From contig LODT01000034.1 of assembly GCA_001606155.1 (NCBI GenBank), positions 97,665 through 161,664 of the forward strand: a DNA stretch of 64,000 bases, given 5' to 3'. The position numbers were made by a program, and so were the translations under genes. This DNA comes from Tieghemostelium lacteum (taxonomy: Eukaryota; Evosea; Eumycetozoa; Dictyosteliales; Raperosteliaceae). This document shows, in pieces, positions 15,021 to 45,129 of the stretch (position 1 is its first letter; every line of letters begins with the position of its first letter). A model generated the notes under the pieces. The model saw nothing but the letters and a program-made list of their open reading frames with translations, was not told where the DNA came from and did no database searches.

Positions 15021-18000
15021 ATGGCAATGAAGAAAGTCGGGTTTCTAGTCATACTATATGCATTTTTAATAGTATCAGTAAATGCTGGAAGTTTAAATAC
15101 ACAATTATTTAAAACTGTTGATTTAACACATCCATATGAAAATAATGTTTATGGAACTGTTTCAGGTGGTTGTAAATTAACTATAGTTCTATCAATCACT
15201 GATCTTACATCATTAGGTATTGTGGGATATGAAGTTTCTTTTACAGGATTAACTACACAACCTAGTTTTAGTATCAGAGAACTGAATGGAAATATTAATG
15301 TTATAGAATTTTCTTTACCAAATGTACCTGGAGGAGAAAATAATATAACCATCAAAGCTGATACCACAGGTGGACTTGGTCAATACGAAATTTACCAATT
15401 TTCCTACTATTGTGAGATACTTCCACAGTAAATATATATTTAAAATATCAAAAGAAACTAAAATTTACAATAGATCTAACCATATTATATTTAATATAGA
15501 GGACCATTCTTGGTAAATTCAGTAGGTTTTGATTTTGCAGATGGTTATTTATTTCAAACCGGAGCTGGATATGTATCCATTCCATTGAATATAACAAAAA
15601 GATTACCACCAACAAATCAACTTTCATTGCAAGTTAATGATGTAACTTATGCATGTAATGTTAAACTGATTAATAATACATGTTATATTGCATGTTATTT
15701 AAATATAGGACAATTATTAGGTGTCAATCCAAATGTTGTAATTAATGGTTATGTTGCAGGTTCAAATAGATTTTCAGTTATTTTAGAATCTTTTGTTAAA
15801 GTTCAAAATACAGAATCACTATTACCCCAAGTAACTTATTATCCGTCAACTATCTCTGAGTTACCTAGTAAAACTAATTTTTATCAACTTTCAACAGTAA
15901 ACAATTTCTTGGGATACTTTATAGTGATACCTAGTAGTATTACAAATGGATACAGTAGTTACATAGTAGGAGGTTCTCCAGGTAATCTCACTTTATTATC
16001 ATCATCAACAATGAATTCTATTCAAACATTAACTTCTCAACTAGTACTATTTAAAGACTACGCACCAACATCACCAGTTTATGTACAATCAACAAACCAA
16101 TTTAAATGTCTAAGTAAGTATTTTCAAATCTCTGATTTTAATATTTTATGATCTATAATGATAACATTCTTAATATAACTTTAGCAAATTATGTTCAACC
16201 TCAAACTACATTTGTATCTCATAGCATTCAGGATAACTATACACTTTATAATACTGTATCAATTCAAGGAACTGTTAATAGTCCATGGAACGGTTTATTA
16301 GAATTTACTCAAAATGGATTTTCATCCATTTATCCTAATTACTATCCATTTGGATGTGTGAATGGTCTTCCATCTGCACCTACAAAGTCAATGGGTTACC
16401 CTTTCATTATTCCTTCTTCTTATAAAATAGATCTATATTTAGATGGTTCTAGTGTATACTCTAACAATGCAGTTATAAATGGTAGGTTAAATATCAAACT
16501 CTCACTCTCAATGCATATTAATATTAATATTAATATTAATATATATAAACAGATATACAAAATCCAAAATTATTAGATATACAATACAAATATATAAATA
16601 GTAGGGAAATGGTAGTAACAGCAGTAGCATCGGATGATGTATCTGGTATAAAGACAATTTATTTATATTCACAAACTGAAGCACAATATAGATTCTATGA
16701 ATTAAATAGTTGGGATTTAGTTAGTGGTACTTTGAAATCTGGAACTTTCCAAAAATTAATTCAATATAAATTCGATAGGGTTTTAGGTGACTTAATGATC
16801 AGAGTTGAAGATCATTCAGGTAAATACTCCAAGTATGAATATCTCAATGGTAAACCACTACCACAATATTTATATGATTTCACTACTTGTAAGTACTATA
16901 GTACAGCTTACTCTACTATTACTACTACTTTAAATAGTTTCTAATTGTAAATTTAATATAGATAAATATCAAATTAGAAGTGATATTTCTAATATATTCT
17001 TCAAGGACGGAAATGTTATGGATCTTTCGACATCAGCAAAGAACAATACAATGATTATTAGGTTTTTGTCACCAAAGCCTGATGTTTCAGCAGTACTCTA
17101 TTTCACTGATGAAAATTTGATTTATAATAGATATTTTATAGGTGATTGGAATGAAGAACTTCAACAAATGGAAATTGACTTTTATTTACCATCTCGTTTA
17201 TTAACAGGAAGTGTATTTTATTCAATTTCCTATCCAGGATATATTTTTGATTCTCCATACTTGAATCAAAGATATCTAGGTTCCTATCTAAAAGTTATAT
17301 CTGATAGTATGTATATACACATTAAATACTACTTTAATTATTTTATTAACACATGTTTAATTTGTAAAATAGATTGTGATAGAATGCCACCATTGATTAC
17401 TTCAATTATAGAATTTAATAGTGATGGTTACTTTGGATTTGATATTACAATTGAAGATGAAACTGGTTTTGATAGAGGTTTTATTTCTGTAAAGAGTAGT
17501 ATTGATGATTATAGATTTAATTTTACACTTTCAAGTGAGGCTAAAAATCCATTGGTTGATGTTTATAGAATTAGTATACCATTTGTTGTACCGTGTGTAT
17601 TCCAAAGATTCTCATTGGATATTGTAGAGTTATACGATATAAATGAAGCTGTAAGTACTTTTTCTGATGGAAATAGTAATGGAGTATCACCATTTATGAA
17701 GATATTAGGAAATGTAAATACAACTATACCAAGTTGTGGTTTGTTCACTGATAACTTACCACCATCATTTGGGAACATAACTTCTATTACAAGTTCAGTA
17801 GACACTGGTTCTGAAGATAGATTGGTTACAGTTTCATTTATGGTTTATGATGACGTTGCTATTTATTACCCCCATTTGCCATCTTGTTTAGCAACTAGTG
17901 AGGGAATGGTATATTTAACTGTTGTTTCAACTCTAGTTAATTTTACCCAAAATGTTGCCAATTATAGATGTGATTTCAATTTACCTTATGGGTTTGGATA

Positions 18001-19429
18001 TCCTTCTGAATCTGGAAAATTATTAATATCTATATATGGTATTGCAGATACGTCTCTAAAGATTATTGGTACTGATATAACTGATTTTGTAAATATTACC
18101 TTCACAAAACTTCCATTTATAACAAAAACATCAAACATGACAACACTAGGTGGTAGTTTGACTATTTATGGAAGAAATTTTGGTTTAGATCCACTTAAAA
18201 CTACAGTTGAGGTCAGTTATAAGGATTTGAAATTCAATTATACAACGTCAACTCTCTATACAGATTTGGTTGTAATCGATAGTATTTTAGAGAAACAGTC
18301 TAGTTTCAATATCACTTTGATTAATACTGGACAGAGATCTAATATATTCACAGTTTTAGCTGAATATCTTCCACCTACTGGAACACCAAATCCTACAAGT
18401 TCAGGTTCTAAATGTCCAGGTACACCAGAATGTGGTGGATCATCAAATGGAATATGTGTAAATGCTGTTTGTCAATGTAAATCACCTTGGATAGGTTCTG
18501 ATTGTCTCTCACAAGTTATTGTAGTTCCAAACCCCACTATTAACACAACTGATCCTGCTATTGATAATAACTTTAATACCACTTTACCAGATGGTGATAC
18601 TGTTACTCTTAAAACTCTCATTTCTATCATCTCTCTAAATGAAATGAATATCAATAATACATTAATTAAAGAACATCCATTCACAACATGGATTTTCACC
18701 AATCAAACCACCGTTAACCAAACACTATCTCAACAATACCAATACTCAACCAACATCACCAACAATAGATTGACAACCAATATTATAATTACTCTTCAAT
18801 ATTTCACTGAAGAAACAACATTGATATTCGCCAATCAACTTCTAACCATTCTTCCATCATCAATTAAATATAATATTAAACTTACACCATACCAATTCTC
18901 ATCAGAATTGAATTATCTTCAATTGATAATGTCAGCATCAATCGAATCAACATCAACTGATTCATGTACCTATCAAGAAACAGGAACAACCAATGATTCC
19001 AATAACGATTATGTCAAACTTCAAATTGACAATAACTCACTCTATGGAAGATTCATTAAAAGAGGAGTTATCGACAACCGAGTCAGAACCATTGAAAATA
19101 TATTTTTCAATAACAATGAATCAACAAATTCCAATTCCAACTCTAGAATTGGTATCAATATCCCATATTTCAGAAAATCAGTTGAATTAGATCCAGATTT
19201 TTCAGTTCTTCTTGATATCACCAATGCCAATGACAAAGATAATTCAATTTGTCACATTTCTGATAAAGGACTCACTAAATCACAATTGGCAGGAATCATC
19301 ATTGGTGCAGTTGCATTTGTATCTATAGTTGCCATCTCTATTGCCTATGTTATTTGGAAAAAGAAAAAACATCAAAAACTATTGGGAATCATGAATAAAA
19401 AACTTGGTTCTCTAAATACCAATAAATAA
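15021..19429 (+). CDS. ComC-like EGF/TIG membrane protein, array gene A
   Basis: Six exons: 15021–15427, 15500–16113, 16185–16481, 16553–16888, 16962–17306 and 17373–19429, all with matching phase, giving 1,351 residues. It has a signal peptide (about 1–22), a long beta-rich ectodomain of repeated units, a TIG/IPT-like segment (about 915–1000, with LGGSLTIYGRNFG), one EGF-like module with six cysteines (about 1014–1044, CPGTPECGG...CQC...GSDC), and a conserved membrane-proximal domain (about 1048–1300) matching what I know as the ComC 'supersandwich' region. One transmembrane helix follows (about 1305–1328), then a short Lys-rich tail. It is probably a cell-surface adhesion or signalling protein of development. 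The 66-bp intron at 17307–17372 has no stop and a length divisible by three, so ORF callers will read through it. Confidence 0.85.
16516..16541 (+). repeat. ATTAAT microsatellite in intron 3 of gene A
   Basis: About four to five copies of ATTAAT close to the acceptor end of the intron at 16482–16552. It is not seen in the equivalent intron of gene B and is likely to vary in length between strains. Confidence 0.6.
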
Positions 19430-19560
19430 CGATTCTTTATGATTGTCAACAAACAAATCGGATGGCATCCAAATTTTGTTGCGATTTCATCAGATATTTT
19501 TTATTTGAAAAAATTTTTTTATTCTCAATTCCAATCAATTCTAATATCTATTTTAAAACT

Positions 19561-22500
19561 ATGATTTTGTATTATAAAATATTTACTATATCTTTAGTTA
19601 TAATTATAGTTTATGGAGGAGGTTTAAATACCAATTTATATGAAACTCTTGATCTTACACATCCACTAGCAAATAATGTTTATAGTTTAGGTATAACAAC
19701 AGGTTGTAATTTAAAGTTTATTTTTAGGGTAAAAGATCTTCTATCAGTAGGAATACAAAGTTTTGATTCTTCAGTAGCAAATCTTTACTCTATAAATTCA
19801 GAATATGGAAATTATACTATTGTTGAATATTCTTTAAACATTCTTCCAGTTGGTACTAGTGATCTTATTTTTTATCTAATGACTGTAGGTGGAAATCAAT
19901 ATTCATTTTATGAAATTTTACAATATAATTGTGAAATAATACCAACGTAACTATTATTTTATAAAAATGATATTAAATAGTTTTGATTAGCATTCTAACC
20001 CTAGTTTTTTTTTTCTAATTTTTAGAGGCTTTTTATTGAAAAACCCTAATTTTAATATTCCATTTGATGGTGATTATCTATATACTACTGGTATTGGGTA
20101 CAATGTGATACCTTTAAATATCACTAAAAGGATACCTGCAGATATGGTAATTGAAGTGACAGGAGGTGGCTATTCTTGTATTGCTACCATGGTTAATACA
20201 TCAGCATATTTCAATTGTAAAACTGATTCTGTAAATAATATATCTGAAAATATAGAAATTAGAACAATCATAGATGGTACAGACCAATTTGTACTTTCAT
20301 TAGGATCCTATGTGAAACCTGCTGTAGTTGGTCTATCAGCTACCCTTACAACCACTGTCTTTCCTTCTGTTGTAGAGTTACCTACTAAATCAAATTACTA
20401 TATTTGCACATATTACAGTGAATATAGTGGACTTTTTTTTACAGATTCTTCTGGACAAACATCAGAGTCATACAATTACATTGTAGGTGGTAGTCTTGGT
20501 AGTTTCAGTCAAATCTCTACCTACTCTCTAACTGAAATTCAAACTATATCCTCTCAAATAGTAATCATTCGATCATATTATCCAACACCTCCTAACATAT
20601 ATGTAGTACCAACTACATTTTCAGTTTTGAGTAGGTATTAAAACTTTTATTTCAATTTTTAAGAAATACCCTAAATGTAACTAATATGCTTTTATAAACA
20701 GATAATTATGTTAATCCAACACCATCATTTGGCCAAGTTACTGGAAATACACTTACAGTTAGTGCATCTAAAATAATGGAGGCTCAAACTCTAGGTACCA
20801 ATGTATATGCTGCTCCATTACTAATTAATCAAAATGACTTTTATGGTGAATATCCAAACTATTATCCATTTGGATTAAACTCCTATTCTCCATCATCAAC
20901 TTCAATGACAATGGGTTTTAAGAGTTTAGTACCACAATCCTACCAAGTAATTTCAAAAATATTCAATGTTCAATACTATGATAATGCTGTAACAACCCAA
21001 GGTAAGTTCATACACATTATTACCAAATACATAATTTAATCTAATTATCAATATATCTATATTCAGATTTAGAAAATCCAGTACTTGTTGATTTAAAATA
21101 TGATTATATAAGTGGTAGAGAAATGGTAGTAACAGCTGTTGCAACTGATGATGTTTCTGGTATAAAAAGTATATATTTATTTTCTATTGACAAGTCCTAT
21201 TTTAAGTTATATGAACTTAGTAGTTGTGATATTATTAATGGTACTTTGACTTCTGGAGTATTTCAAAAGCTTATTACCTATAACTTTGAAAATATATTGG
21301 GTAATCTTAGAGTTATGGTAGTAGATCATTATGGAAGAACCTCTGAATATTCCTATTTAAATGCAAAACCATTGCCACAATATATATATGATTTTTCAAA
21401 TAGTATGTATTTTCAAATACACAAATTAAAATAGTTATAAATAAGCTGATTTTATAGTTATTAACTTTCGTTATACAGGTATTTATCAAATGAAAAGTGA
21501 TATTGTATCAATATCATTCAAATCTAGTACAATGGATCTTTCAACATCACCAAAAAACAATACAATGTTTATTAAATTTCAATCACCAAAACCTGATATT
21601 TCAGTAGCCTTATATTTCAAAAATGAAATGAACATTTATTATCGATTCTTTATTGGTGATTGGAATGAAGATATTCAACAAATGGAAATTGAATTCTATT
21701 TACCATCTAGACTATTAACTGGAAGTGTATTCTATTCTATTTCATATCCAGGATATCTCCTTGAGTCTCCATACTTAAATCATTTGTACCCAACATCAAA
21801 ACTAAATGTATATTCACAAGGTATGTTTTTTAATATTATTTTATAATTCATATATACTAACATAATCATATTTAGATTGTGATAGAATGCCACCATTAAT
21901 TATTTCAAATGAAACATTCAATAATGGTAGTTACTTTGGATTTGATTTAACAATTAATGATAAAACTGGTTTTGATAAAGGTTTTGTCTCGATAAAGAGT
22001 GATTTGGATGAATTTAGATTTAATTTTACTCTTTCAAGTCAAGGTAAAAATGCATTGAATGATGTCTATAGACTTGAATTACCATCATTTACACCATGTA
22101 TAACTCAAACATTTTCTTTGGATATTGTTGAATTACATGATATAAATGAAGCTGTTAGTTCCTATTCAAATGGAATGAGTGATGGAATATCACCATTTTT
22201 GATGATTATGGACAGTATAAGTGTGTTACCGGTTTCATGCACCCAATTCGCTGATACTGTTGCACCTAATCTAAGTTATCTATATCCATCTAGAAACACT
22301 GTAAACACTGCTTCTGAAGACAGACAAGTTAGTATCACATTCTCCATAACTGACAACAGCGCAATCTATTATAATCACGTACCATATTGTATGGCAAATA
22401 GTGAAGGTTTAGTATTTTATACTACACCTTCTAAACTAGTAAACTACACTACCACCATCGCTTTTTATCAATGTGATTTTGATCTACCATTTGGGTTTGG

Positions 22501-23941
22501 ATATCCTTCAGATTGTGGTAAAATTCTCTTTTTACTATATGGTTTCGCAGATACTCGTTTAAATATCAAAAGTACGGGAAATACTATTCCTGGTTTGATA
22601 TTTGTTACTTTTAATAACAATGGACCTATTATAACAAGAACTTCTAAAATGACATCTCTAGGTGGTAGTTTGACAATCTATGGAAGAAACTTTGGTGTGA
22701 ATCCACAAAATGCTATAGTTGAAGTTAGTTATAGAGATTATACCTTTAATTACACAACATCAATACTCTATTCAGTTTTAACTGTAATTGATAATATTCT
22801 AGAAAAACAGTCTGAATTTAATATCACTCTGATTATCAATGGACAGAGATCCAATATGGTAATTATTCAAACTGTATATGTACAACCATTACCAACTTCA
22901 ACTCCAAATCCTACAAGTTCAGGTTCTAAATGTCCAGGTACACCAGAATGTGGTGGATCTTCAAATGGAATATGTGTAAATGCTGTTTGTCAATGTAAAT
23001 CACCTTGGATAGGTTCTGATTGTCTCTCACAAGTTATTGTAGTTCCAAACCCCACTATTAACACAACTGATCCTGCTATTGATAATAACTTTAATACCAC
23101 TTTACCAGATGGTGATACTGTTACTCTTAAAACTCTCATTTCTATCGTCTTTCTAAATGAAATGAATATCAATAATACATTAATTAAAGAACATCCATTC
23201 ACAACATGGATATTCACCAATCAAACCACCGTTAACCAAACACTATCTCAACAATACCAATACTCAACCAACATCACCAACAATGGATTGACAACCAACA
23301 TTACAATTACTCTTCAATATTTCACTGAAGAAACAACATTGATATTCGCCAATCAACTTCTAACCATTCTTCCATCATCAATTAAATACAATATTAAACT
23401 TACACCATACCAATTCTCATCAGAATTGAATTATCTTCAATTGATAATGTCAGCATCAATCGAATCAACATCAACTGATTCATGTACCTATCAAGAAACA
23501 GGAACAACCAATGATTCCAATAACGATTATGTCAAACTTCAAATTGATAATAACTCACTCTATGGAAGATTCATCAAACGAGGGGTTATCGACAACCGAG
23601 TCAGAACCATTGAAAATATATTTTTCAATAACAATGAATCAACAAATTCCAATTCCAACTCTAGAATTGGTATCAACATCCCATATTTCAGAAAATCAGT
23701 TGAATTAGATCCAGATTTTTCAGTTCTTCTTGATATCACCAATGCCAATGACAAAGATAACTCAATTTGTGAACAAATTTCTGATAAAGGTCTTTCTAAA
23801 TCACAATTGGCAGGAATCATCATTGGTGCAGTTGCTTTTGCATTGATTGCTATCATTTCTTTATCCTATTACTTCTATAAAAAGAGAAAACATCAACAGT
23901 TATTAAACGAAATGGATAAGAAACTTAAAAACTTTAATTAA
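19561..23941 (+). CDS. ComC-like EGF/TIG membrane protein, array gene B
   Basis: Six exons: 19561–19946, 20026–20630, 20702–21001, 21067–21402, 21479–21820 and 21876–23941, giving 1,344 residues. The intron positions and phases are the same as in gene A, and exon 4 has exactly the same length (336). The start at 19561 was chosen because it opens a clean signal peptide (MILYYKIFTISLVIIIVYG); an upstream in-frame ATG at 19462 would add a 33-residue leader. Layout: signal peptide, beta-rich ectodomain, TIG-like segment, EGF module (about 1009–1039), ComC-type domain, transmembrane helix (about 1300–1321), basic tail. The last third is almost identical to gene A at the DNA level, while the first two thirds have diverged clearly. 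Only about 130 bp separates it from gene A. Confidence 0.85.
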
Positions 23942-24207
23942 ACTCTTTTAGGTAACATTATCTAAAGTTTATAATAAAAAGACTCTGCTATATCACAACA
24001 AATATTCTTAAAATATAAATATTACAACATTGTTAATATTTTGTACGAAAATATTAATTATTTTATGATAAAACCTTTTGGTATTAAGGAAGGTAATTTA
24101 CACAAAAATGTGGATATTTTAAATTACATGAATTTGAAAAAAATTTCAGTGATGATCAATCAATCAACATGATGATATTTTTAATTGTGTTTTCTTCTTG
24201 ATAAAGA

Positions 24208-27200
24208 ATGTTTAATTGTAAATTACTTGTATTTTTTCTATTTGTATTAGTTCAACTCTATGGTAAGTTGATTGTATAAAATATATAGATATAAATTGAA
24301 AATTTAACATTTAGTGAAAAAAGATTGTTATAAAATAAAGATATTAAACCCAAATGAGCTTAATTTTTATGCAAGTACTGAGAAATCTGAAACTACTCAA
24401 TGTAAATTACAGTATTTTATTATGATTTCACCTGAACCTGGTGATGTTCCACCTACAGGAACCGAGACATTTACAGCGGATAATAGTCCTATATCTCTTA
24501 TACCTCAAATATCATTGGTTGATGATAGTTTGTATGTTAGATTTAGTGTTTATCAGCCATTTAATAGCAAAGAAGCACGTAATATTACAATGAAATCAAT
24601 AAGTGGTATATTTCTAGATCAGTTTAGTTTGCCTGCTAAATGTATAACTTTACCATACCCATTGGTAAATGTAAATACTGATTATAATGATTGGAAATTT
24701 TCAAGTGAAGAGTTAGGTTACTATTATACCTATCTCCAATTCAATTTGGATAGGTATCTAAATATACCAATGTTTACACTATTAGATACTACTTCACCAT
24801 ATACATGTGAATTTGAACAATATGGTTATACTATTCTAAAATTGAAATGTTATATTGTGTCAGGTGACTATACTGACCCTTTAGGTTTGACTTTTAATGT
24901 TATAATCAAAGATCCAACACCAGGAATCAATAGAAATACTACATATACAATTCAATCATTTATAGATGCAAGTATGTAAATTTTTATATTTCGAATCAAA
25001 ATGTATATTCCAGCGGTGATATCTAATATATAATCTAAATTGTAGATGCAGACATACCAGATGGATATCCATTAAAATATAGAGATGTAACAAAGGTATC
25101 ATACCAAGATTACAATTTATTTGTGTATTTGAATGCAAGTGATGATGTGTATTTTACAACTGCGATTGTCCAACCGCTCAACAGTGTTTATTTGAATAAA
25201 TTGGTTTTTTCAAATTCCACTAGTAGAACACTTTTATTCTTCTATAGACTCATAGAAGATGGTCAAAAAGTTCTCATTCAAAATTCCTATTCAGATGAAA
25301 TGAAAGTTAGATTTGAAACTCAATTTAATTTTCAAACTCCAATAACATTAATAGATTCAGTAGATGTTACATTTAGTCAGAGCCCAAATACTGTAGATAG
25401 CCAATTATTCCTATTTAGTTATGAAATTGATGGTGAATACTATGATTATGATCTCACTTTTAACTATGGTGATAATAGTAGAGTGGTATCATATGACTAT
25501 CCATTTGGAACTACTCTAGTATCTGGAGGATTAATGCAAGCTAATATCATAGCTTACCTTCCAAAATTTGTAAATCTTGTTGGATCTCTGTCTGCTCAAA
25601 ATTTGATGAACCCCAGCATTGATGTTTTCTCTAAAGATCTAGCACTAAATTCACTATGGCCAGCAGATGAAGATGAACCTGGTCTAATATCTATCCAAAT
25701 CATTCCAATTGGCCATCAACAAGTTATAGTTAGAGTAAATGCTTTTGATAATACATCAGGAGTCTATTCAATACAAATCTATGAACTATTTCAATTATAT
25801 TCATGTGATATTGTAAGTGGTACTATAAACAACGGTACTTTTGAAAAGTATTTTGATTATAGATATTCAATTACATCTGTCCCGCCATTCAGCCTTATCA
25901 TTATAACTGATCTTGCTGGTAACAGTAAAACTGAATATCTAGCTAAATTCCCTCAGGTACCTTTGATACCTGACTATTTCTATTATGATAATCTTTTGGG
26001 TATGTTTAATAATAATTCAATTTTAATATCAAAACATTATATTAATTTAAAATATTTCAGCTGAACAATTTAAAAGACCAATTAGTAGAATATACTTTAA
26101 ATCTAATAATGTTGATCTAACTTCTAAAAATGTAAAAAATTCATTATACATCTATATTGAAAATTCACATCCTGAAGATATTATAAGATTGGAGATTAAT
26201 TGTATTAATGTGAATGTATATGGTTATTGGAATTCTAAATTGTCAATGTATCAAGCTGATTTTACATTACCTATGAATATGCATAGTGGTGTAATACCAT
26301 ATAATGTATACTATAGACAATTGAAATATGATAGTATATATCTACCTCCAACTGGACAATTATCAGTGGTGTCAGAATCTACAGATAGACTTCCACCTCT
26401 CATAGTTAATATAACTCAACCTCAAACTGATTATGTAGATGGTGGTATTAGAATTCAATGGACAATTAAAATTGAAGACAGTGTAAATGGGTTCAGTATT
26501 GGTATGGCTCAAGTTAGATGCCTTCAAGATCCTTATAATTCATATACCTATGAATTTGTACAAAATGGGTCCATGTATTTAGAGGAGTATAATATAACCA
26601 TAATAGTACCTAACACCGGAGCTTCTTTAATATACAATTTAGTTTACATGGAATTGTATGATAGAGCAGGTCTAAAAAGTGTTTATAATGATCTATCGTA
26701 TATTCAATCTATTAATAGAAAGAATCCAGTTGTCTTCCAAGATGTCAGTCCATTTTGTAAATGGGATAGCTTTTATTCGAATTTTTTGACTATTCCAATC
26801 AATGGAGTTCCAAAACCTGATTCACAACCTCCTTCAGTCACAGAAGTGTATCAATCATCCCCTAGTATTGATGTAACAGCTGTTGATAGATCATTTTCAT
26901 TAACATTTACGATTGTAGATATCGATAGTAAATTATCACAATTTCATGTACCCAAATGTTTCTTACATGGTATACTATTCCAAACTGTAAATGTCACTGC
27001 TAAACTAATCTATGAAGACATCCCACTAGCTATAGCAAACTACACATGTATATTTGATAACATTCCATATGGATTCGGGTACCCTGGAGCATCACTATAT
27101 TACACCATCTCAGGATACTCAGATATCTATCTAAACATTGGTGGAACTAGCCCATCTTCTAAAATTGGACTACTATTCACACAAAGTATGCCAATCATTG

Positions 27201-28513
27201 AAACTGTATTACCAATTCCTCAACAATCTAATGGGGATTTAACAATAGTCGGAAAGAATTTCTATAGAGCTCAATTCAAAATCAAAGTTGAGTACACAGA
27301 TGAGACTTTTGATTACATTACCAATATAACTAAAAAGTATCAAAGTTATATGGTAATAACAACAAAATACAAAGAGATTAGATTCATCTGGGCATTGTCT
27401 TTAAATGATGATATATTCAGTAGATATATTATACCTGAATATACTATTCCTATAATACCTGTTATAAGATGTCCAGGTACACCTGAGTGTGGTGGAACCC
27501 AAAATGGTGTGTGTCAACCTACTGGATGTCAATGTACACCTCCTTGGACAGGTTTAGAATGTCTCTCACAAATCATCAACACCACACCAAAAATCAATTC
27601 AACCAACCCATCTATTAACACTGATTTTAATACTACTTTACCTGATGGTGAACAAGTATCTCTGAGAACACTGGTATCCTTTATGTCACTAAATGAACTC
27701 AACCAAAATGGACAGGCTATACTCTCTCATGTGTTCACAACATGGATATACACCAATACCACTTCAAAATCATCTTTATCTGATATTCAAGAATACACAT
27801 ACCAAACCACTCTTAAAAATAGTTTAAATACAAATGTAACTGTTACGCTACAATATTTCACTAAAGGTCAAGTTATAGAATTTGCCAATCAGAAATTGGA
27901 AATGTTAGCATCAACTATAAAATATAGAATTGATATGTCACCTTACCCTTTCCAATCCACTGTAAACTCATTAAGATTGATCATGAATACAGCACTGGAA
28001 TCCAATTCTAATATTAAATCATCATGTTCAAGTCAAGAGAGTATTGATACTGATGATAGTCAATATGTTAAACTTCAAGTTGACACCCACAGTCTCTATG
28101 GTAGATTTATTAAAAGAGGTATAATAGATTATAGAGTACAAACTATTAGTAACACTATTGGAGCTGATAGTACTACATCTTCTCAAGAGTCTAATCAAAC
28201 CTCATATTCATCAAGTACCAATGTTGGAATCAACATACCATATTACAAATACTTTGTAACTCTAGACCCTGATTTCTCCATTCTTGTTGACACTAAAGGC
28301 GCTGATACTAAAGAGAACTCCTTATGTAACCAATCATCAAATGATGATAGCAATAATTCCAAATTAACATCTATACAAATTGCTGGAATTGTAATTGCAA
28401 TTGTAGGTGCTCTAGTAGCTCTAGGTGTAGGATATGCATTCTACAGATACAAAGTTAACAAACGTAAAAAAGAACAACAAAGAATAAATAAATTATCGGA
28501 TTATAAATTCTAA
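24208..28513 (+). CDS. ComC-like EGF/TIG membrane protein, array gene C
   Basis: Four exons: 24208–24262, 24315–24971, 25046–25999 and 26061–28513, giving 1,372 residues. Exon 1 encodes only the signal peptide (MFNCKLLVFFLFVLVQLY), and all three introns are phase 1. The ectodomain resembles that of gene D more than A or B. The EGF-like module is at about 1026–1056 (CPGTPECGGTQNGVCQP...), the ComC-type domain follows, the transmembrane helix is about 1326–1350 (IAGIVIAIVGALVALGVGY), and the tail is Lys/Arg-rich. The third exon is one uninterrupted 954-bp piece where gene D has three exons, so introns were lost here or gained in D. The ligand and partners are unknown. Confidence 0.85.
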
Positions 28514-28936
28514 TTTCTTTCAGAAAAAAACACCCCCTAAGTTGATGAAGTTTAAACAGAACACATTTTAAAATATCTTATAAATCCACTCAATTTATTT
28601 TTTTAGTTTAAAAGAAATTGAAGGTTACAAGGTCATATACCCATCAATCAATGGATATTTATTGTATCGGTTATTTGATGACGTCTTGAGAAGTAGCTTC
28701 TTTTTTCCCATATTCCAATCGTTTGACATTAATAGATACTTTAAAATATTTGACCCAATTCCTTCATTGAATAGGGTGACTTTTTAAAAACAAATATATT
28801 AAGGTTATATAAATTTCTAAAAAATCTTTGATATTTTAAAAAATACAAAAAAATTAAAATCAATGAGGTGTAAAACCCATCTTAACCTATTATTTTGAAC
28901 TAAAATTTATTTTATTTTATATATTTTAAAGTTAAA
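28514..28936. other. Intergenic between array genes C and D
   Basis: 423 bp, A/T-rich, with no ORF or RNA signature seen. It is the widest gap inside the four-gene array and separates the members of the C/D pair. Confidence 0.5.
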
Positions 28937-31900
28937 ATGTTTAAAATTATAAATTTATTATATATACTAATATTAATTGATTTTATATGTATGAATTGAT
29001 CTAAATATTTGCAGGTTTTTTTTCCTTATCGAAATTCTAATTTTTGAAAATTTTATTTTTAGATTGTTATAAATTTGAAATTATAAATAGAAATGATCAG
29101 GAGAAATACCCGACCATATTAGATAATGGTCAATGTTCGATTTTATATAAAGGTATTATTTATACCAATGGTGATCTATTTCCTGATACTATAATGGTTA
29201 ATTCTACATTAGGGAGCGCAGTTTCAATCTACTATAAATCTGAAAGACTCATCTATGCTGAGATTAGAGTGACTCCATATTTTAATACCAATGGTACTTT
29301 TGAATTATCTCTTTTTGAAGGTAATGTACAGTTGTATCCATTAGAACCTGTATTACAATACAGTTGTATTACCATGCCATATCCATTGGTTAACTCAAAT
29401 AGTGGTTATGCCAAATGGTCAAATTCAGGTCAAGATGGGTACTATGAAACCTACTTGAATTTAAATCTACAGAAACAAATTGACTTGTTATTAACAGGAC
29501 CTAATGCTTTAGTACAATATCTCCCAAATGACATTTACCAATGTACTTTCGAACAGTTTTCATTTCAAATTCTAAAAATTAGATGTTGGTTATCTTGGAT
29601 CTCATCTAATCAGGTTATTCCATCACTTAAAATTCAAATTAAAGATTCAACCAGTTCGAGAATCTCTCAATTTGAAATTCCAAGTTTTTTAGGAAACGGT
29701 AAATATACCCTACAAATAGTAAATAGATTTTAAAAATCGTCTATTAATATTATCTATAGAAACTAGAGAACCTGTTATAGCATCAGCCGTGTATTTTCCA
29801 CATATATCATCAACTAATCCTTATTCTGATTTTTATGTGTTATATAAGGTTTCCAATTTTAAAAATAGTTTTTGTTCTCTTATGGTATCTAACCCAACAA
29901 CCTATTATGGTAAAATAGTTGAAGGTACTGCCAATGATAAAATGTATTTATTTTATAAAGTATTTTTAGATAGATTCGATAGCTACCAAGTTAGTTTAGC
30001 AACCTCAAAAAACTATACTGTATATTTTCAAACACCAATTCAGACTCAAACTAGTAAGTCTTACCCAAACCCTGTAATATTTGGCAAATTTCTAATTTAA
30101 TATAATTATAAACCAGTTAATATAGTTGATTCTCAATTAGTTGAGAATATACCACCCTATGAAATTCAACAACCATCTTTATATATGAGTAAATTAAATA
30201 TTACTGGTACTCAATTATATACATTCCCAGTAACAATTACCAATAATTTATTTAAAAAGGTTTTGGAATTCCAGTACCCATATGGTTTGATTAGTCAGAT
30301 TAATGGTGATGTTTTAACTTATCTATACCAATATCTTCCACAATGGAAGAGAACTGATTTAAATGCCTATAGAAGTTATTCGTCAACACCATTATTTACA
30401 ACTATTCTAAATGCATCAATTGGTTTGTATAATATTTATAAAATTTAAATTTGATTATTATTATTAACCAATAATCAATAACAGATTCAATTAAACCAGA
30501 ATTTAAAACATTACGCTTTACATCAGTAGGTTTTCAGAAAATTGTCATTCAAATACAGGCAACTGATGCTGAGTGTGGTATTTTCAATATCAAGGTATTT
30601 GATTTCATTGAATTGACAGCTAAAGATTTGGTAAATGGTACCACTACACAAAATGGAACTTGGGAAAAATTTGTAGATTTTCAAATGCAATCTACATTCC
30701 TATATGGTTGGCAGTCTCTTACTGCCTATGATTGTGCTGGAAATGAAGTAAAATATGATGTGTTTAATTTTATACCACCTATTGAAGGTTATTTCCCAAC
30801 TTTTCATGATAAATGTATGTATTACAACACTTTTCTAAATATTTGAAAATTTTGTAATATTAACTTTATTTAATAATCAAGATGAACAATCACTTAGAAC
30901 TATAACTACTGTGTTTTTTACATTAAATAATGTTCCATTAACTGGAATTGGATGTAAAAATTCATTGTTTATTAATTTTACAAATTCACATCAAGAGGAT
31001 ATCATTAGAATGGAGTTTCAGACTTTTGAATTGAATTCATTTGGGTATTGGAATAAAGAATTGGCAATGTTTCAAGTTGATTTTGAACTACCAATGAATT
31101 TGTTCACTGGAGAGATACCTTATAATATCTACTATAGAACATTGAAATATGATAGTATATATTTCCAACCAAGTGGTCACTTATATGTACATTCGGATGT
31201 AGCTGATCAGATGGCACCCTTAATAACTGCAATCTATCCTGGAGACCCACATCCTGAACTTAAATTAACTTGGATATTGACAATTGAAGATAAAGTCAAT
31301 GGATTCAGTCATGGTTTTGTAAATATTACTGGTGAATTAGATCCTAATAATCCATATACTGTTAAATTGGCTGCTGTTGAGCCATTTAAACCAGTTGCCA
31401 ATTATACAGTTTCCATTGAAATCCCCAAACCTTGTAGAACTCAATTCTACAGGTTCACTTATATTGAACTTGTTGATAGAGGTGGTTACAAGAGTGTCTT
31501 TAATGATCTTGAAAAAGTTAGATCTGTGGATCCATTGAATCCTCCAGCTTTCAAATATATATCTCCACTAATGAAACTATTAAGCAATGCTGAATTGTGG
31601 TTTTCACAATTTTATTGTCCATACAATAATACAGATTATCAACCACCACAAGTTACCTGGTGTTCAGCTTGGGATAATCAAGTCAATATTGATACATCAC
31701 ATTTCGAAAGAGATCTTATTATCAATTTCACAATCACTGATGATGCTCATCCAATATCACTTAGACATACTCCATATTGCTATCTCCATGCAATGTTATT
31801 TGATACGGTATCCACTAGAGCAAGGTTCTTGTCAGACGAAACCACTGAACTCAGTGCCAATTTAAGTTGTCATTTCAATGTACCATATGGATTTGGATAC

Positions 31901-33307
31901 CCAAACAGTATTGTATATTTTAGTATCTCAGGTTTCTCAGATATCATGTTAAATGTAGGTTCATCACCAAAAGGAGTAAACAATACTATTGAAGTGAATT
32001 TTCCAAGATGGTATGCAATAATTGATACTGTATACCCCATTCCACCTAGACCTGATGGTTTGCTAACTATTGTTGGAAAGAATCTTCAGGCAACTGAATC
32101 AGTTCAAATTAACTATTTCAATCACACCAAAATTTTACCAGCTGAAGAGAATATCAATAATTTTGATACTATTGTAGTAGTAAAAGTGAATCCATTGATT
32201 TTAATTAAGGATATTGTAATCACATTTCCTAAACTATCCAATAGATATAATGTACCTAATTATTATATACCACCTCCAAAATTTGATTGTCCAGGTGCAC
32301 CTCAATGTGGAGGGCCATCTAATGGAAGATGTACAGTAAAAGGATGTGAATGTGTAAGTCCTTGGACTGGTTTAGACTGTCTTTCGCAAATTATTGTTAT
32401 TCCACCAATTATTGATCCTTCCAATCCTGGTACAGAGAATAACTTTAATACCACTCTACCAAATGGACAGACTATAACATTAAAGACTCTCATTAGTGTA
32501 GTGTCTTTAGTTGAACTGGACAGAAATGGAGCTTCATTAAAAGAGTTTAAGTTAGTTACATGGGTATACAGAAACACTACATCACCAGATACTAAAATCC
32601 AGGAATTTACCTATCAATCACAAATCTCTAATATTATAACTACAAATGTTAAAGTAACTGTTCAATACTACCACGAAGCTACTACTATTTACTTTGCCAA
32701 TGAGAAATTAGATATGTTACCTTCAACAATGAAATATAAAATTGAAGTTTCAAAATTCAATTTTGCATCACCTTTGAATACTCTAAGAGTAGTTATGAAT
32801 GCCACTATCCAAACCAATGATATTAAAGAGTCATGTTCAGTACAAGAATCTGGTGACTCACCTAACAGTGCCCAATCAGAATATGTTAAATTACAAATGG
32901 AGAGTAATAGTCTCTATGGTAGATTTATCAAAAGAGGTTTAATAGATAATAGAGTGCAAGCAGTAAGCAATACAATATCCTCCAATAACGCATCAGTTGG
33001 TGTATCAACTACAACCATTGGTATAAATATCCCACATTATATGTACAGTGCCATTTTAGACCCAGATTTCTCAGTTCTTATCGATACCATTTCAGCACAA
33101 GATAAAGACAATTCCCAATGTTTCTCAAATTCCAACAGTTCAAAACTTACAAAAGTTCAAATTGCAGGTATTGTCATTGGTGCAATCTTAGGTACAATAT
33201 GTATAGTCTTTGCTGCATTTTATCTCTTTTACAAAAAGAGGATGAATAGAATTTCAATAGAGAAATTTAATGAAAAAATTAATAGATTAAGTCTACAGCA
33301 ATCATAA
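28937..33307 (+). CDS. ComC-like EGF/TIG membrane protein, array gene D
   Basis: Six exons: 28937–28988, 29063–29698, 29760–30053, 30117–30422, 30485–30814 and 30882–33307, giving 1,347 residues. All five introns are phase 1. The donor after exon 4 is GTTTGT, weaker than the GTA(A/T)GT used elsewhere. Exon 1 encodes the signal peptide (MFKIINLLYILILIDFI). The EGF-like module is near 1009–1039 (CPGAPQCGGPSNGRC...), followed by the ComC-type domain, a transmembrane helix (about 1298–1322) and a basic tail. A conserved stretch shared by all four array genes, SLYGRFIKRG, lies shortly before the helix. It is probably a surface glycoprotein, as many N-x-S/T sites are present. The exon structure was inferred from frame and comparison with gene C. 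Confidence 0.85.
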
Positions 33308-37814: not shown

Positions 37815-40800
37815 CTAAATTCCTTTATTTTTGTTTGGAGAAGATACTGGGCTGGAAGGAACTGATTGTGATTTTGCTTTTCTATTGATTAATTTTGGAC
37901 TTGGGCTATTTAGTTTTGAGCTTGCTATTGATTTTCTTCTTTTAAATTTATTACTATTATTATTTTTGGTGCTATTATTGTTATTGTTCCCATTAAATTC
38001 AATATCACTATCACTACTGTCATCAGAAGAAAAGGTTTCGTGAATTTGATAAGTTGGGAATTCTTGATCTTCATCATAATACATTCGATAAAATAACAAT
38101 AATTCTTTGTTTTTGTTAATTTCTAATTCTTGTTGTTCTATAACCTTTTTAATCTAAAATTCATTGATATTAGTATAAAATTATAGAGTATGGATATTGA
38201 GAGACTATTATTCTTACATTTAATACAATAGATTCACCTCTATATAATAAATTAAATTTAGGAAAGAATACTAAAATTAATGATATTATTACAACAGTAC
38301 CTGATGTACTTATATTAATTAGATATGCAGTGTTAGGATCACTATTTAATGCCAATGATAATGGAACATAGATTATAACAATGGCAGCATAATTAAAAAT
38401 TAAAATACCATTCCAAGCGGCTTCATCAAAGGTTCCTGGTGTTTTTCTAAATTTACGAATTTTAATAACTACCACACAAAATAATATTAATGATGCAACC
38501 TAGTATAATTAAAAGTATTAATATTAATATTAAGTGTATAAAATATAAAGAATAATAACTTACTAGATAAACTCCTAATAAGATAACAAATATTATATAG
38601 TATCCTTTTTGATGACATGATTCGATAGCTTTTAGTTCATCAAGGTAAAATTGATATATACTCTTTACTGGTGTGATGGTGACTTCTAAGATGATTATAA
38701 ACACTGGTATAATCATAAATAAGAGTAGATATTTGAATAAGAATTGATTTTCAATTAGACTATCTTTAAATTGATTGTTTTTGAAAAACATGTAGAGCTT
38801 ATATTCCTTTATCAGTACCAGACCTACTAGTAGTGATATACCTATAGCTGGGAATATAATTTTAATGTAACATGATGCTTTGGAAAGATTTATCATTACA
38901 AGATTACTAATTAGTAATAGTACACATGAGAACAGCACTAATAGTAGTGATGGGACATTTGAAAAACTTATAACAATATGGTTTCTATTGATTAGGATGA
39001 TGATGAATACAACTAAACATGCAACTAATAGAACTATACTAACCACTGATCCAATGATTTTTGAAGAATCTTTGATTTGCTCTACGGATAGGCAATAGAC
39101 ACTATTGTTATTGTAGACATCAAATGCTTTTTGGTGGTTTAGACATTCTGTGAATGTTAGCAGTTTGGAGACTTTTTTCATTCCCAAACCCTGTGGTATA
39201 GAATCGTAGATTAGTCTACACGATTGACCTGGCATTAACCCCATTTGAAGTGAGTTTAATGATGTTTGGCCTACATCATGTAAGAATGATGACAAAATAC
39301 CATGAATGGGTATACCTGGACACCCCTTATTGTAAACTTTGATATCAGATCTACCAAGAATTGGATTACCAAATCTATCAACAGCTGTAATGATGACTGG
39401 AAACACCTGGCCAGGTGCCAAAGTTGGCATCTGAGTGATGTTGAGTCTGTAAAAACTAGAATTTACTAATGTACCATTAAGTGCTGTATTGTTTCTATAG
39501 GTACAATCGTCACATGTCCAATTACATTGTACACATCCTTGATAGAAAACCAAAGATCCTGATTTTATAGCTAAATTGTGAAAGAACTTATTTTTTGAAT
39601 ATAAACTACTAAGACAACTGGTATTGGTGGCTTTGGAACAGTTCAGCTCTCTAGAAGCAAACAAGAATATAGTTCCATATGTACCTACATTATAGATAAA
39701 ATCACAAGCTGCCACATGTATTGCACCAGTTTGATCAGAAGATATCAAACCACCTCTATCTGAATAGTTATAAAAGAATCTAGTCTTTAAAATGGTCATT
39801 TGAAATCCATTATTTGCCATAATGAGTTCAGAGTGATTAGCTCTATTGTACTCAAACAAACTGTTTGCCATTACTAATTGAGCACGATTACTTATACTGA
39901 TTAACCCAACACCAGAGTTATTAGCAAAATAGCAATCTGTTATATACATTAAGTCACCACTGAAATCAATCAAAGAATTATCTACATAATTCCCAGTAAA
40001 TCTACTGGATACCAAATATACATTCCCACTGTTGTATATTGACAATACTCTATCATAGAGTGTGTCAAATGTTGTTGTAAAAATTGCCAAAAATCCCATG
40101 AACCCTGTCGATAGAAATGTACCTGAAACATCATAAATATAACAATTTCTAATAACCATTGAACCTTGATTTATCGATACTTGATTCTTTGTAAATCTTA
40201 ATAAATTACAACCAATTAAACTACTCATTTCAAAAAAAGTTGAATATCCAGACCTATTGTCAATCAACGCTGATTTTGGTGAATAATTTAAATGAAAATA
40301 CGAGCCCACAACGATTATATTCTTTCCAGTTGATATAAAGAATACAGCAGCATCCAATTTAGCTTCATTGGAATTAAACTTACAAAACTTGAATATAGAT
40401 AGTGTATCTTGAAGATGAATAGCACCACCAATCAACGCACTATTCGATTCAAAATGGGACTGTCTAATCATCACCCTTTCAGATTTCTGAACTAGTATAG
40501 CACCACCTTTCATTGCATAGTTATAATAAAACCTTCCACCAATAATAGTAACATTTGTAAAAGTACTAAATATAGCACCTCCACTGTCTCTAGCCATATT
40601 GGAAATGAATTGACTGAAATACACCATCAACATACTATCATAGCACCCAACAGCACCTCCAGACTCAATCACTGAGTTATTCACAAATTGACAATTGGTA
40701 AATCTTCCTGTTGTTCGATACGAAAACACAGCTCCACCTTCTCTTGCAATATTATTTTTAAATCTACAATTTTCTATATAAAATCTTGACGAATATAAAT

Positions 40801-41299
40801 ACATTACACTACCAAACCCAAACCAATCTCTAATGATAATATGCATTTGGGGGTCATCTAAAACCTTTTTCTTCACACCTTCAAACCTAAATCTCGGGGA
40901 AAAGTTACTAAATGTCAAATTCTGGAATCTTACTCTACTCTCATAGACAAATATAAATCTACCTCTACTTTCGGATGTAAAATGTGCCTTTTTACTCTCA
41001 CCAATCACAGTCAAGTTCTTGAAAGATTTTATAATAATTGGAGTATTAACTTCCTTATATCTACCATTTCCAATCCATATTGTTATATTCTGTGTTGTTA
41101 CGTCATTTGAAGGAATACGGTTCTTTATAATATAATCCAAAGTCGCACATGAAGTTGGCAATGATTGTCCACAATTACCATTATCCACACCACTCTTTGT
41201 CATGTAAATAACCCTAATTCCTAATATAATTGATGGATAACATATAACCAATAGTGCCATTATTAACACCACTGTTATACAAAATCTATGATTTATCAT
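37815..41299 (-). CDS. Chimeric receptor: beta-helix ectodomain fused to a class C seven-helix GPCR
   Basis: Three exons, 38564–41299, 38218–38499 and 37815–38153, all phase 0, giving 1,118 residues. It has a signal peptide (about 1–27), then some 600 residues of right-handed beta-helix-like repeats in the style F-N-C-x-F-x-N-N-x-A-x-x-G-G-A (for example IENCRFKNNIAREGGAVF), as in pectin-lyase-fold surface proteins. A linker with cysteines (GCVQCNWTCDDC) follows. From about 748 there are seven hydrophobic helices. The Cys before TM3 (SKASCYIK) and in loop 2 (IESCHQKG) fit the conserved disulfide, and KFRKTPGTFDEAAW after TM5 is the class C (GABA-B-like) signature. The cytoplasmic tail is Asn/Ser-rich (about 1007–1118). 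Known dictyostelid Grl receptors carry a Venus-flytrap-type domain instead. Confidence 0.83.
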
Positions 41300-42038
41300 T
41301 TTGTATATCTAACAATCAATCTATTGAATTTAAATTCTATCATTTGTATTGGTAATTACTATTCTATCACTATTATATCAAAATTTAAATTAATTTAATT
41401 TATTAATATTTATTTTGATCAGTGAAATAAAATATAGAAATGGTGAAAGATCATCTTACAATTATTAATAAAAACTAAAATTCCATAAAAGAATAAAATT
41501 AATTATTATATTGATTTTGTTTGGTTATTTACGGTGTTTCCACATTAATAGATAGATGAATAAGAATATTGAGATAACTCGATATTCTATTTCACCTCAT
41601 ATTGTGTTAGAATGTAAATGTGTATGTACATACATTTACATTACACTATAAATATTGATAGATTAGCAACCATTTAATTATTATACGTTTTGTTCACAAA
41701 CACACAACACTAACACACCAATCAGAATATATAAATAACTTTGTTCTCTATCATCAAGATATGTGTGGTAATTGGAGGGGTTTGTGTGTTGTGTGAGTAA
41801 ATAAAAAACAAATATAATTTAAATTTACAATGATGAGAAAAACAACAACAAACTTTAATTTGACAAATGTTTGAGGGTAAAAGCTTCTATTTATATAATC
41901 TCTATCAAGCATCGTGATCATATTTTCACCAGCTACAATTGGATTTATTGAGTGTTAAACGATATAAAGACATTAAATTTTTATAATATTAAATTTTCAA
42001 TATTACTTTACCTACAGTAGAATTTATTTTTATATTTA
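41300..42038. promoter_or_regulatory. Divergent promoter with paired CA/GT boxes
   Basis: 739 bp between the receptor and mannosidase genes. It carries a CA-rich block at 41695–41719 (CACAAACACACAACAC) and, 45 bases on, a GT-rich block at 41762–41796 (GTTTGTGTGTTGTGTG) that is nearly its inverse complement. GT/CA-rich G-boxes bound by GBF drive cAMP-induced developmental genes in Dictyostelium. Whether these boxes act here is inference. The rest is A/T-rich. Confidence 0.4.
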
Positions 42039-45000
42039 ATGAAACTGGTAATATTATTATTACTATTACTATTTGTTCTCTCAATAAATTGTAATGAAAA
42101 AATTAAAGTTCATTTAATATGGTTTGTGTTTTTTGCATTGTCTGAATTAAAATAAAATCTAATAAAAAAAAAAAATTAAAAGTCATTCTCATTGTGATCT
42201 AGGTTGGTTAAAAACAGTTGATGAATATTATAATAATGATGTTAGTAAAATTCTGACCAATGTTGTTGATTCATTAAATAATAATACACAAAGAAAATTT
42301 GTGTGGTCTGAAATGTAAGATCTATATATAGTGATTGTGAATGGAATGCAGAGAACTAATAGTTGAAGGGGGTAAATTAATAGAGGATATTTAGAACAAT
42401 GGTGGAAATTAATTACACAAGATCAAAGAGAATTATTTAAGAAGTTTGTTAAGGAAAAGAGATTAGAGATTGTAAATGGAGGTTGGGTAATGAACGATGA
42501 GGCTTGTGCTTCTGTTGATGATGTTATAAGACAATTGACAGAAGGTCATAGATTTATAGTGGAACAGTTTGGTGAGGATGCTTTACCAAAGAGTGGTTGG
42601 CAAATTGATCCATTTGGACATAGTAATCTGACACCTTATATACAGTCTCAAATGGGTTATAGACATGTGGTATTGGATAGATTGGATTATAGATTAAAAG
42701 ATCAGTTAAAGGATCAAAAGGATTTACAGTTTCTATGGAGAAATGGTATTGGATCTGTAGGTGACACCAATTCAACTGACATGTTTGCACATGTTTTAGA
42801 TGACTTTTATTTCTCACCTCCACATTTATCATTTGAATTGGAGTCTAATCTCGACTATTATGACTTGAAATTCAATATTCTAGACATTAGAAAATACGCA
42901 GAAGAAAAAAGAAAGTTTTTTCAAAGCCCACACATTTTGATACCCATAGGTGGTGATTTTCATTTTAGAAATGCTCAGAAATGGATGGATAGAATTGACC
43001 TTATTGAAAAGGTAATGGAAGAAGAATATCAACAGGGACTTAGTAACATTGTAGCTGTGTACAGTACACTAGCTGATTTCTTTAATGACACTATTACATG
43101 GCATAGAGAGAACTCTGTGCCTTTTAAATACTACCAAGGTGACTTTTTCCCATATGCTGATAAACCTGATGAATACTGGACTGGATATTATACATCAAGA
43201 CCAAAGTTAAAAGGTCAAATTCGAGATGTTTCTTCAAAATTGAGAAGTGCTGAGATTATCTCTTCTCTTTTACTACCTAATGTGTCATTAGACCATGTTC
43301 AGTTACTAAAAGAAGCAAGTCAGAATCTATCGGTATTACAACACCATGATGCTGTTACTGGTACTGCTAGAGAACATGTAGTTCAAGACTATTTCAGTAG
43401 AATTTCAGATGCTACTCACAAGATTTCTAAAGTTTTTTCAGGAGTTTTAAAAAGTGGGGGTAATAATACTGAAGATTTTGATGAATTTGAATTTAATATT
43501 CTAGATGTTAGAAATCATATAAAGATGAGTAAAGGGTCAAAGAAATCAATGGTATTGGTGAACTCTTTGAATTGGTTAAAACAAGATGTAGTCAGTTTGA
43601 AGATTCAATATGACCAATCACTAATTCAGAAAGTTGATGAATGTCCTTTCTCTGTGATTGACAGTGATGATAGTGATATATCCATTGACTGTTCTGTAAA
43701 GAGTGAGTTACAGTTAGAGTCTCCTGATAACAGTCCATTGGAAATTGTTTATTTTCAATTAGACTTTTATATTGAAATTCCAGCATTATCAATCAAGACG
43801 ATACACATTCTACAAAAGCATTCTAAAAGGTCAAGTTTCTGGGTTCCAACTCTGAGTAGATACTCTCCAAAATCTATTGACAATAGATGGTACAGGTTAG
43901 TACTAAAAGACAGTAATTCACTGTTAGAGTCCATACACTTTTTAGATAAACACTCAGAGAGAATGACACTGAATCAAAAGATAATGTATTATAATGATAT
44001 TGGTGGTGCTTATGTATTCAAAAATGACGGTCAAGCTTATGAATTCGACCATTACAATGCCACTGTTTATTACTGGGATGGTAGTTTAGTCAAAGAAATT
44101 CATGTATACTATAGAGATGAATTTCCAGGTCGAACACCACACGATACCACTGAAATTGTAAATAGTCTAATTAAATTAAGAATCTATAACAGTTCTATAG
44201 AAACTGTGGATAAGAGACTATATTTTCAGTATATACTCGACAGTAAAAGTAGCTCTACTCGTATTGTCAGATTCTCAACATCTTTACAAACTGATAGTGT
44301 ATACTCTGATAATGGTATACAACTACTCCAAAGAGACCTCAGTAAAGATCCTTTGGAACCTTATAAATCCTATTACCCTAGTATCTCCATAGCAATGGTG
44401 AGAAACGGTACTGGTAGCAGTCATAAAGATGATACCTGTTTCCTATGTACCTCTGATAGAACTAAAGGAATCGGTAGTTTAAGATCAGGAGAATTTGAAA
44501 TGGCATTACATAGAAACTTGGAAAGAGACGATCAAAAAGGTCTAGAAGAACCAAATCACGATTACACACCTGTACAGGTCCAATCCCAATGTTTCTTTTC
44601 AACTTACCAAGAAGTACAAAATGGTAAAATCAGAAGACATGCTTTGGAACTTGAACATCCTATTAGATTCTATTCCATCAATCCCGATAGTAGTGACAAA
44701 ATAGGAGCTAGAATAGACAGCAGTCTACTATCACCATACTATACGTTACCAGACCATATTCATATCCTGTCTATAGACAAAAGAGACTGTACTGATTCTG
44801 ATGATAGCAGTTTAAATATAAGGTTATGGAATATCAAAGAAATTGATGAGAATCCAACTGTCGTTAATCTTCAACATTTATTTAGTAGCGTTACTATAGA
44901 CTATATAAAAGTAATGACACTTTCAAATCTTCAATTAAACGATAATTTCAAGTCACACCAAGAGTACTTTTCAACAATACCATACCAAAATCAAAGTATA

Positions 45001-45129
45001 CTCAATAAGAACTTCACAGTATCTACAGTGAATCATAATCATCATTCTAATATATTACAAGATACTACCATAATCTCTATACTACCACTGGAAATTAAAA
45101 GTTTATTTATAAAATTTGTATCTAAATAA
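42039..45129 (+). CDS. Lysosomal-type alpha-mannosidase (GH38)
   Basis: Three exons, 42039–42121, 42183–42314 and 42384–45129, giving 986 residues. It hydrolyses alpha-mannose from N-glycans in lysosomes. A signal peptide opens the protein ([18 protein letters not shown]). The zinc-site motif is HSHCDLGW (about 29–36), where the ligand His and Asp are kept although the usual sequence is H-S/T-H-D-D-x-G-W. The nucleophile region SGWQIDPFGHS, then LQHHDAVTGTAREHV, and the C-terminal half (RTKGIGSLRSGEFEMALHR) follow the family order. The first donor is GTTTGT rather than GTATGT, which is weaker; the second is GTAAGA. Dictyostelids carry several GH38 paralogs, so no symbol is given. Confidence 0.92.

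What the first reader, a model, noticed from the sequence alone, without database searches (positions are those of the whole stretch)
37815..41299. Receptor fusing a beta-helix ectodomain to a class C GPCR core
The sequence directly shows a signal peptide, about 600 residues of NN-x-A-x-x-GGA-style beta-helix repeats, and then seven hydrophobic helices with the class C signature after TM5 (KFRKTPGTFDEAAW) and a Cys pair placed as in class C receptors. GABA-B-like dictyostelid receptors known to me carry a Venus-flytrap-type or short ectodomain. A carbohydrate-fold ectodomain suggests a sensor of polysaccharide or surface ligands. The cytoplasmic tail carries an acidic stretch (SSDDSSDSD) suited to phosphorylation.
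Basis: partly seen in the sequence, partly recalled or inferred. Interest (0 to 1): 0.75.

Follow-up and report, generated by a model that had tools for sequence, protein, structure and literature searches.

The report
Beta-helix class C receptor (GrlP/Q/R type)
This social-amoeba gene encodes a cell-surface receptor that carries a rod-like beta-helix domain in front of a GABA-B-like membrane core; the combination is real, but it is already on record for social-amoeba relatives and gut fungi.

Summary

Prabhu et al. 2007 report Chlamydia-PMP homology in the long N-termini of D. discoideum GrlP, GrlQ and GrlR; PMP repeats are beta-helix coils. Seppala et al. [quoted passage not shown] So this is a diverged Tieghemostelium lacteum member of the GrlP/Q/R type, deposited under a misleading kinase name and without its signal peptide. 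Ligand unknown; polysaccharide or surface-ligand sensing is plausible but untested.

The parts
38564..41299 (-). Exon 1 (residues 1-912): signal peptide, beta-helix, stalk, TM1 into TM5
   Evidence: Splice model; one uninterrupted frame 38462-41308
41216..41299 (-). Probable signal peptide (about residues 1-28), absent from the deposited protein P0001
   Evidence: Hydrophobic segment 1-34; P0001 starts at residue 33; P0081 and P0082 have hydrophobic leader segments upstream of the aligned position. No signal-peptide predictor was run
39530..41203 (-). Right-handed beta-helix ectodomain, residues about 33-590
39086..39514 (-). Cys-containing junction and beta-sandwich-like stalk, residues 596-738
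38257..39076 (-). Class C 7TM core, residues 742-993 (split by intron 1)
38500..38563 (-). Intron 1, 64 nt, GTAAGT...TACTAG
38218..38499 (-). Exon 2 (residues 913-1006): rest of TM5 to TM7, with the PGTFDEA loop
38154..38217 (-). Intron 2, 64 nt, GTAAGA...TTTTAG
37815..38153 (-). Exon 3 (residues 1007-1118 and stop): most of the C-terminal helix (possible coiled coil) and the cytoplasmic tail
   Evidence: helix P0001 970-1000 in the model, in a low-confidence part
38004..38030 (-). Acidic Ser stretch SSDDSSDSD in the tail; similar EFSSDSSDDD in the C29:5 kb paralog

Best explanation
A Tieghemostelium lacteum receptor of the dictyostelid GrlP/Q/R type: a class C (family 3) G-protein-coupled receptor whose ligand-facing part is a right-handed beta-helix rod instead of a Venus flytrap. 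Shown by computation: one gene, one chain, beta-helix + stalk + 7TM + C-terminal helix, with the class C disulfide cysteines and the TM3-TM6 ionic-lock residues (K831, E938) kept. Inferred: it is exported, stands on the cell surface as a glycosylated rod, works as a dimer through its TM core and C-terminal helix, and turns binding of an extended ligand (a polysaccharide, glycoprotein or neighbouring-cell/prey surface) along the rod into a reorientation of the two 7TM cores and G-protein activation, as class C receptors do. The tail is a likely site of phosphorylation-dependent regulation.
Against: No ligand, G-protein coupling, localisation or transcript data. No Venus flytrap domain. The gene is the longest branch of its group (1.88 to 2.1) and has K834 at the secondary-lock position 3.53, where 9 of the 12 aligned cores have R, two (this one and C29:5 kb) K and one L (alignment, read by eye). 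The 7TM part of the model has block means of only 41-83. Pfam does not call Beta_helix in P0082 at E up to 0.01; its beta-helix rests on alignment and motif counts. D. discoideum GrlP/Q/R themselves were not returned by the searches, so they were not compared directly.
Confidence: 0.75

Rival explanations
1. Adhesion or matrix-anchoring receptor: the beta-helix mainly holds the cell to other cells or the sheath, and the 7TM core signals little or only mechanically.
For: Several other beta-helix frames of this genome look like single-TM surface proteins (by eye), and GrlP, GrlQ and GrlR transcripts of D. discoideum are strongest at 12 h (PMC1885808 Table 2).
Against: Lock residues and Cys pair of the class C core are kept, which suggests a working switch. 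No GAIN/GPS-type match in the Pfam scan at E up to 1.
Confidence: 0.2
2. Membrane-tethered polysaccharide-acting enzyme (lyase or epimerase) that also senses its product.
Against: The best match is a phage tailspike receptor-binding domain; a shared fold shows no activity; the higher-ranked PL6 rows (5gkd, 5gkq, 8bwk) have rmsd of about 18. Catalytic residues were not tested.
Confidence: 0.05
3. A decaying paralog that no longer works.
For: Longest branch of its group in the 7TM tree (1.88-2.1).
Against: Intact 1,118-codon frame, canonical introns, conserved signature residues, hydrophobic leader.
Confidence: 0.05
4. Artefactual fusion of a beta-helix gene and a separate 7TM gene.
For: None beyond the lack of transcript data.
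Against: Beta-helix, stalk and TM1 into TM5 lie in one uninterrupted frame; the C19 paralog has everything in one frame.
Confidence: 0.01

Closest known systems
GrlP, GrlQ, GrlR of Dictyostelium discoideum (PMC1885808, section 5 read)
   Same: Class C 7TM core with a long N-terminus bearing Chlamydia-PMP (beta-helix) homology; 1407, 1095 and 1604 aa; one cluster of their own among the 17 Grl receptors.
   Different: Sequences not compared here. That paper's table marks them without signal peptide; this gene has a hydrophobic leader. Whether this gene is the ortholog of Q or R is not settled.
P0081, T. lacteum 'G-protein-coupled receptor family 3 protein 15' (C19), and P0082 of P. violaceum
   Same: Same order of domains, same stalk, same C-terminal helix motif; P0081 is collinear over the whole length.
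   Different: About 28-30% identity; P0081 is a single-frame gene; both have longer tails.
Class C GPCRs of anaerobic gut fungi (PMC5168858, passages read)
   Same: Pectin-lyase-fold / parallel beta-helix ectodomain on a class C core in about 30% of the receptors (51+24+32 listed).
   Different: Fungal; sequences not compared here; a few also carry EGF-like domains, and about half of the set have type II sugar-binding domains instead.
P0060, EukProt 'Opistho-1_new@17705'
   Same: PMP-type repeats (GGA 13 times, shuffled mean 2.26, 0 of 2000 shuffles) and 7tm_3 E 6.2e-57.
   Different: Longer ectodomain; no Beta_helix call in Pfam at E up to 0.01; 7TM placement unresolved; stalk not matched by sequence.
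GABA-B receptors
   Same: 7TM core fold and signature residues.
   Different: Venus flytrap ectodomain there, beta-helix here.

Membership tests
Class C (family 3) GPCR | 7tm_3 profile match over the whole 7TM core | tested here: met
   E 3e-27, 96.3 bits against a cut-off of 33.5, profile 3-251 of 251
Class C (family 3) GPCR | TM3-ECL2 cysteine pair and 3.50/6.35 ionic-lock residues | tested here: met
   C810, C895, K831, E938 conserved in 12 of 12 aligned cores; K831 and E938 align with K and D of GABA-B subunit 2 that PMC9360005 numbers K574 and D688
Class C (family 3) GPCR | Venus flytrap ligand-binding domain (typical, not universal) | tested here: not met
   No ANF, BMP or other periplasmic-binding match in Pfam at E up to 1; beta-helix instead. 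Published family members without it exist (GrlP/Q/R, gut fungi), so this does not exclude it
Class C (family 3) GPCR | Couples to heterotrimeric G proteins | not testable with these tools
   -
GrlP/Q/R type | Large N-terminus with Chlamydia PMP / beta-helix repeats | tested here: met
   PF13229 above cut-off, TIGR01376 POMP repeat 22.2 against cut-off 15; PF02415 itself below cut-off (14.1 against 20.6)
GrlP/Q/R type | 7TM core groups with GrlP-like proteins apart from the other class C genes of the genome | tested here: met
   Four dictyostelid beta-helix cores form one group, 100/99 and 100/100. That P0081 is GrlP rests on its deposited name ('family 3 protein 15' = GrlP is recalled)
GrlP/Q/R type | Direct grouping with D. 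discoideum GrlP, GrlQ, GrlR sequences | not tested
   These sequences did not appear in the three protein searches
Pectin-lyase-fold polysaccharide lyase/epimerase | Right-handed parallel beta-helix fold | tested here: met
Pectin-lyase-fold polysaccharide lyase/epimerase | Catalytic residues / activity | not tested
   -
Adhesion GPCR | GAIN/GPS domain before a 7tm_2 core | tested here: not met
   Only 7tm_3, Beta_helix and a weak Chlam_PMP in the Pfam scan at E up to 1
Serine/threonine kinase (deposited name of P0001) | Protein kinase domain | tested here: not met
   No kinase match at E up to 1

The most novel reading that the evidence does not exclude
Beta-helix class C receptors of dictyostelids, gut fungi and the Opistho-1 protist descend from one ancient receptor that predates the split of Amoebozoa and Opisthokonta: a second, carbohydrate/surface-sensing branch of class C GPCRs that works without any Venus flytrap, with a beta-sandwich stalk in place of the cysteine-rich relay. 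In the 12-core tree the five beta-helix cores fall on one side of a branch (81/83, 76% of 200 bootstrap trees), so a single origin is not ruled out; gut-fungal cores were not in the tree.
Probability: 0.2. Interest if true: 0.6.

Novelty: new member of a known kind. Interest (0 to 1): 0.27.

Why it matters
It confirms with profile, structure and phylogeny that a class C core can sit behind a beta-helix rod, in a gene now filed under a kinase name and without its signal peptide. The D. discoideum GrlP/Q/R genes are tractable in the laboratory, so how a class C receptor is switched without a Venus flytrap, and what ligand a beta-helix receptor reads, can be tested directly. The architecture itself is already in print.

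Full report
WHAT IS THERE. The window is G000:C29:97665-161664 of a 23.3-Mb genome; the encoded protein is deposited for Tieghemostelium lacteum (P0001), a dictyostelid. The minus-strand gene 41299-37815 has three exons and two 64-nt GT-AG introns at codon borders; the join gives 1,118 residues. P0001 is identical to residues 33-1118, so the deposited model agrees with both introns but begins 32 codons downstream. The longer start is the better one: residues 1-34 are hydrophobic, and the relatives P0081 and P0082 extend upstream of the same point with hydrophobic leader segments of their own.

DOMAINS. Pfam gives 7tm_3 (E 3e-27, 742-993) and Beta_helix (E 1.1e-11, 5 stretches) in the same chain; NCBIfam adds the polymorphic outer membrane protein repeat above its cut-off. 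GGA occurs 5 times in residues 33-600 against a shuffled mean of 0.18, and a loose PMP rung pattern 10 times against 0.67; 0 of 2000 shuffles reach either. Residues 1-738 hold 19 N-glycosylation sequons and 22 cysteines, two of them in the leader. Between beta-helix and membrane lies a 143-residue Cys-containing stalk that aligns in the four dictyostelid members.

NOT A CHIMERA, NOT ALONE. Beta-helix, stalk and TM1 into TM5 share one uninterrupted frame. The genome has at least ten class C genes (12 matches, two genes in two pieces each). Three of these ten have beta-helix ectodomains: this one, C29:5 kb and C19:649 kb, where the whole protein is one open frame; the genome-wide Beta_helix search listed no match at the other seven, whose ectodomains were not scanned with profiles one by one. 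This protein matches the C19 one collinearly over residues 3-1078 of P0001 (28%, E 7e-94). P. violaceum encodes a 1,474-aa relative; Pfam does not call its beta-helix at E up to 0.01, but it aligns along the C19 ectodomain and has 5 GGA (0 of 2000 shuffles). In the corrected 7TM tree of 12 rows the four dictyostelid beta-helix cores form one group (100/99; 100/100 without Opistho-1); this gene has the longest branch of that group. Ten class C genes is also the number Hall et al. list for D. lacteum (PMC10445921, passages).

SIGNATURE RESIDUES. C810 and C895 (TM3-ECL2 pair), K831 (3.50) and E938 (6.35) are present in 12 of 12 cores. K831 and E938 align with the K and D of GABA-B subunit 2 described as the class C ionic lock (alignment; PMC9360005, passages). 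At the secondary position 3.53 this gene has K834 where 9 of 12 have R (alignment, by eye). The switch machinery therefore looks largely intact; coupling is inferred.

WHAT IS ALREADY KNOWN. Prabhu et al. 2007 (PMC1885808, passages and section 5 read): 17 Grl receptors in D. discoideum; GrlP (1407 aa), GrlQ (1095) and GrlR (1604) are large because of long N-termini with Chlamydia polymorphic membrane protein homology and form their own cluster; their transcripts are strongest at 12 h. PMP repeats are the coils of a beta-helix (PMC11166332, abstract and passages). Hall et al. 2023 (section 10 and passages read): GrlP is conserved throughout dictyostelids, grlQ/grlR amplifications occurred in groups 3 and 4 only, and ectodomains of clades 8-11 have no recognised domains. 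Seppala et al. 2016 (PMC5168858, passages): about 100 class C GPCRs in gut fungi, around 30% with pectin-lyase fold and sometimes parallel beta-helix repeats, proposed as carbohydrate-binding.

MECHANISM. Shown by computation: one chain, beta-helix rod, stalk, class C core with lock residues, C-terminal helix. Inferred: surface export, dimer, and a ligand read along the rod and passed through the stalk to the 7TM core. A polysaccharide or cell/prey-surface ligand is favoured because the fold is that of tailspikes and polysaccharide-acting enzymes and because gut-fungal receptors of this build were read the same way. A further weak hint: large frames of this genome that match this ectodomain weakly (E 5e-5 to 4e-4 for their segments) carry MACPF domains in 6 of the 7 frames scanned, although Pfam calls no beta-helix in those six apart from a sub-cut-off Chlam_PMP in one. 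None of this tests the ligand. D. discoideum grlQ is listed in a table of a Pseudomonas-response paper (PMC2474670, passages), which is a weak lead.

WIDER ORIGIN. The Opistho-1 protein P0060 has 7tm_3 (E 6.2e-57) and PMP-type repeats, and its ectodomain matches 52 of the 80 other collected proteins at E up to 1, but Pfam calls no Beta_helix in it, its core is a long branch of unresolved place and its stalk is not matched by sequence. One ancient origin is possible (probability about 0.2), not shown.

VERDICT. Real and correctly described; a T. lacteum member of the known GrlP/Q/R type of class C receptors. Interest 0.27.

Noticed in passing
window 37815-41299 (deposited protein P0001): The deposited protein is named 'putative protein serine/threonine kinase' though no kinase domain is found, and its start 32 codons downstream removes the hydrophobic leader.
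   Followed up: yes
L033 (two frames), L035, L036, L037, L038 (own genome C9, C31, C20, C23, C40): Large frames that weakly matched the beta-helix of this receptor carry MACPF domains, two of them also PA14 (6 of 7 frames scanned): possibly a beta-helix plus MACPF family in this amoeba.
   Followed up: partly
L009 (own genome C29:4200-9800): A second beta-helix class C receptor gene about 130 kb away on the same contig, with a similar acidic tail; its first exon and start are unclear.
   Followed up: partly
P0060 (EukProt Opistho-1): PMP-repeat ectodomain on a strong 7tm_3 core outside dictyostelids; contamination of the source transcriptome cannot be excluded.
   Followed up: partly
P0056: Beta-helix ectodomain joined to a protein kinase domain: the same kind of ectodomain on another transducer.
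   Followed up: no
window 16934-33307 (+): Four same-strand frames with DUF7035, DUF7949 and the ComC supersandwich domain, three of them also DUF7034: a local expansion of ComC-like proteins.
   Followed up: no
window 37815-38153, and the tail of P0081: Basic Ser-Pro motifs of the form K/R-S-Q-S-V/L-P occur in both tails and resemble 14-3-3 sites (motif recalled, not tested).
   Followed up: no
window 42376-45129 (+): Neighbouring glycoside hydrolase family 38 alpha-mannosidase.
   Followed up: no
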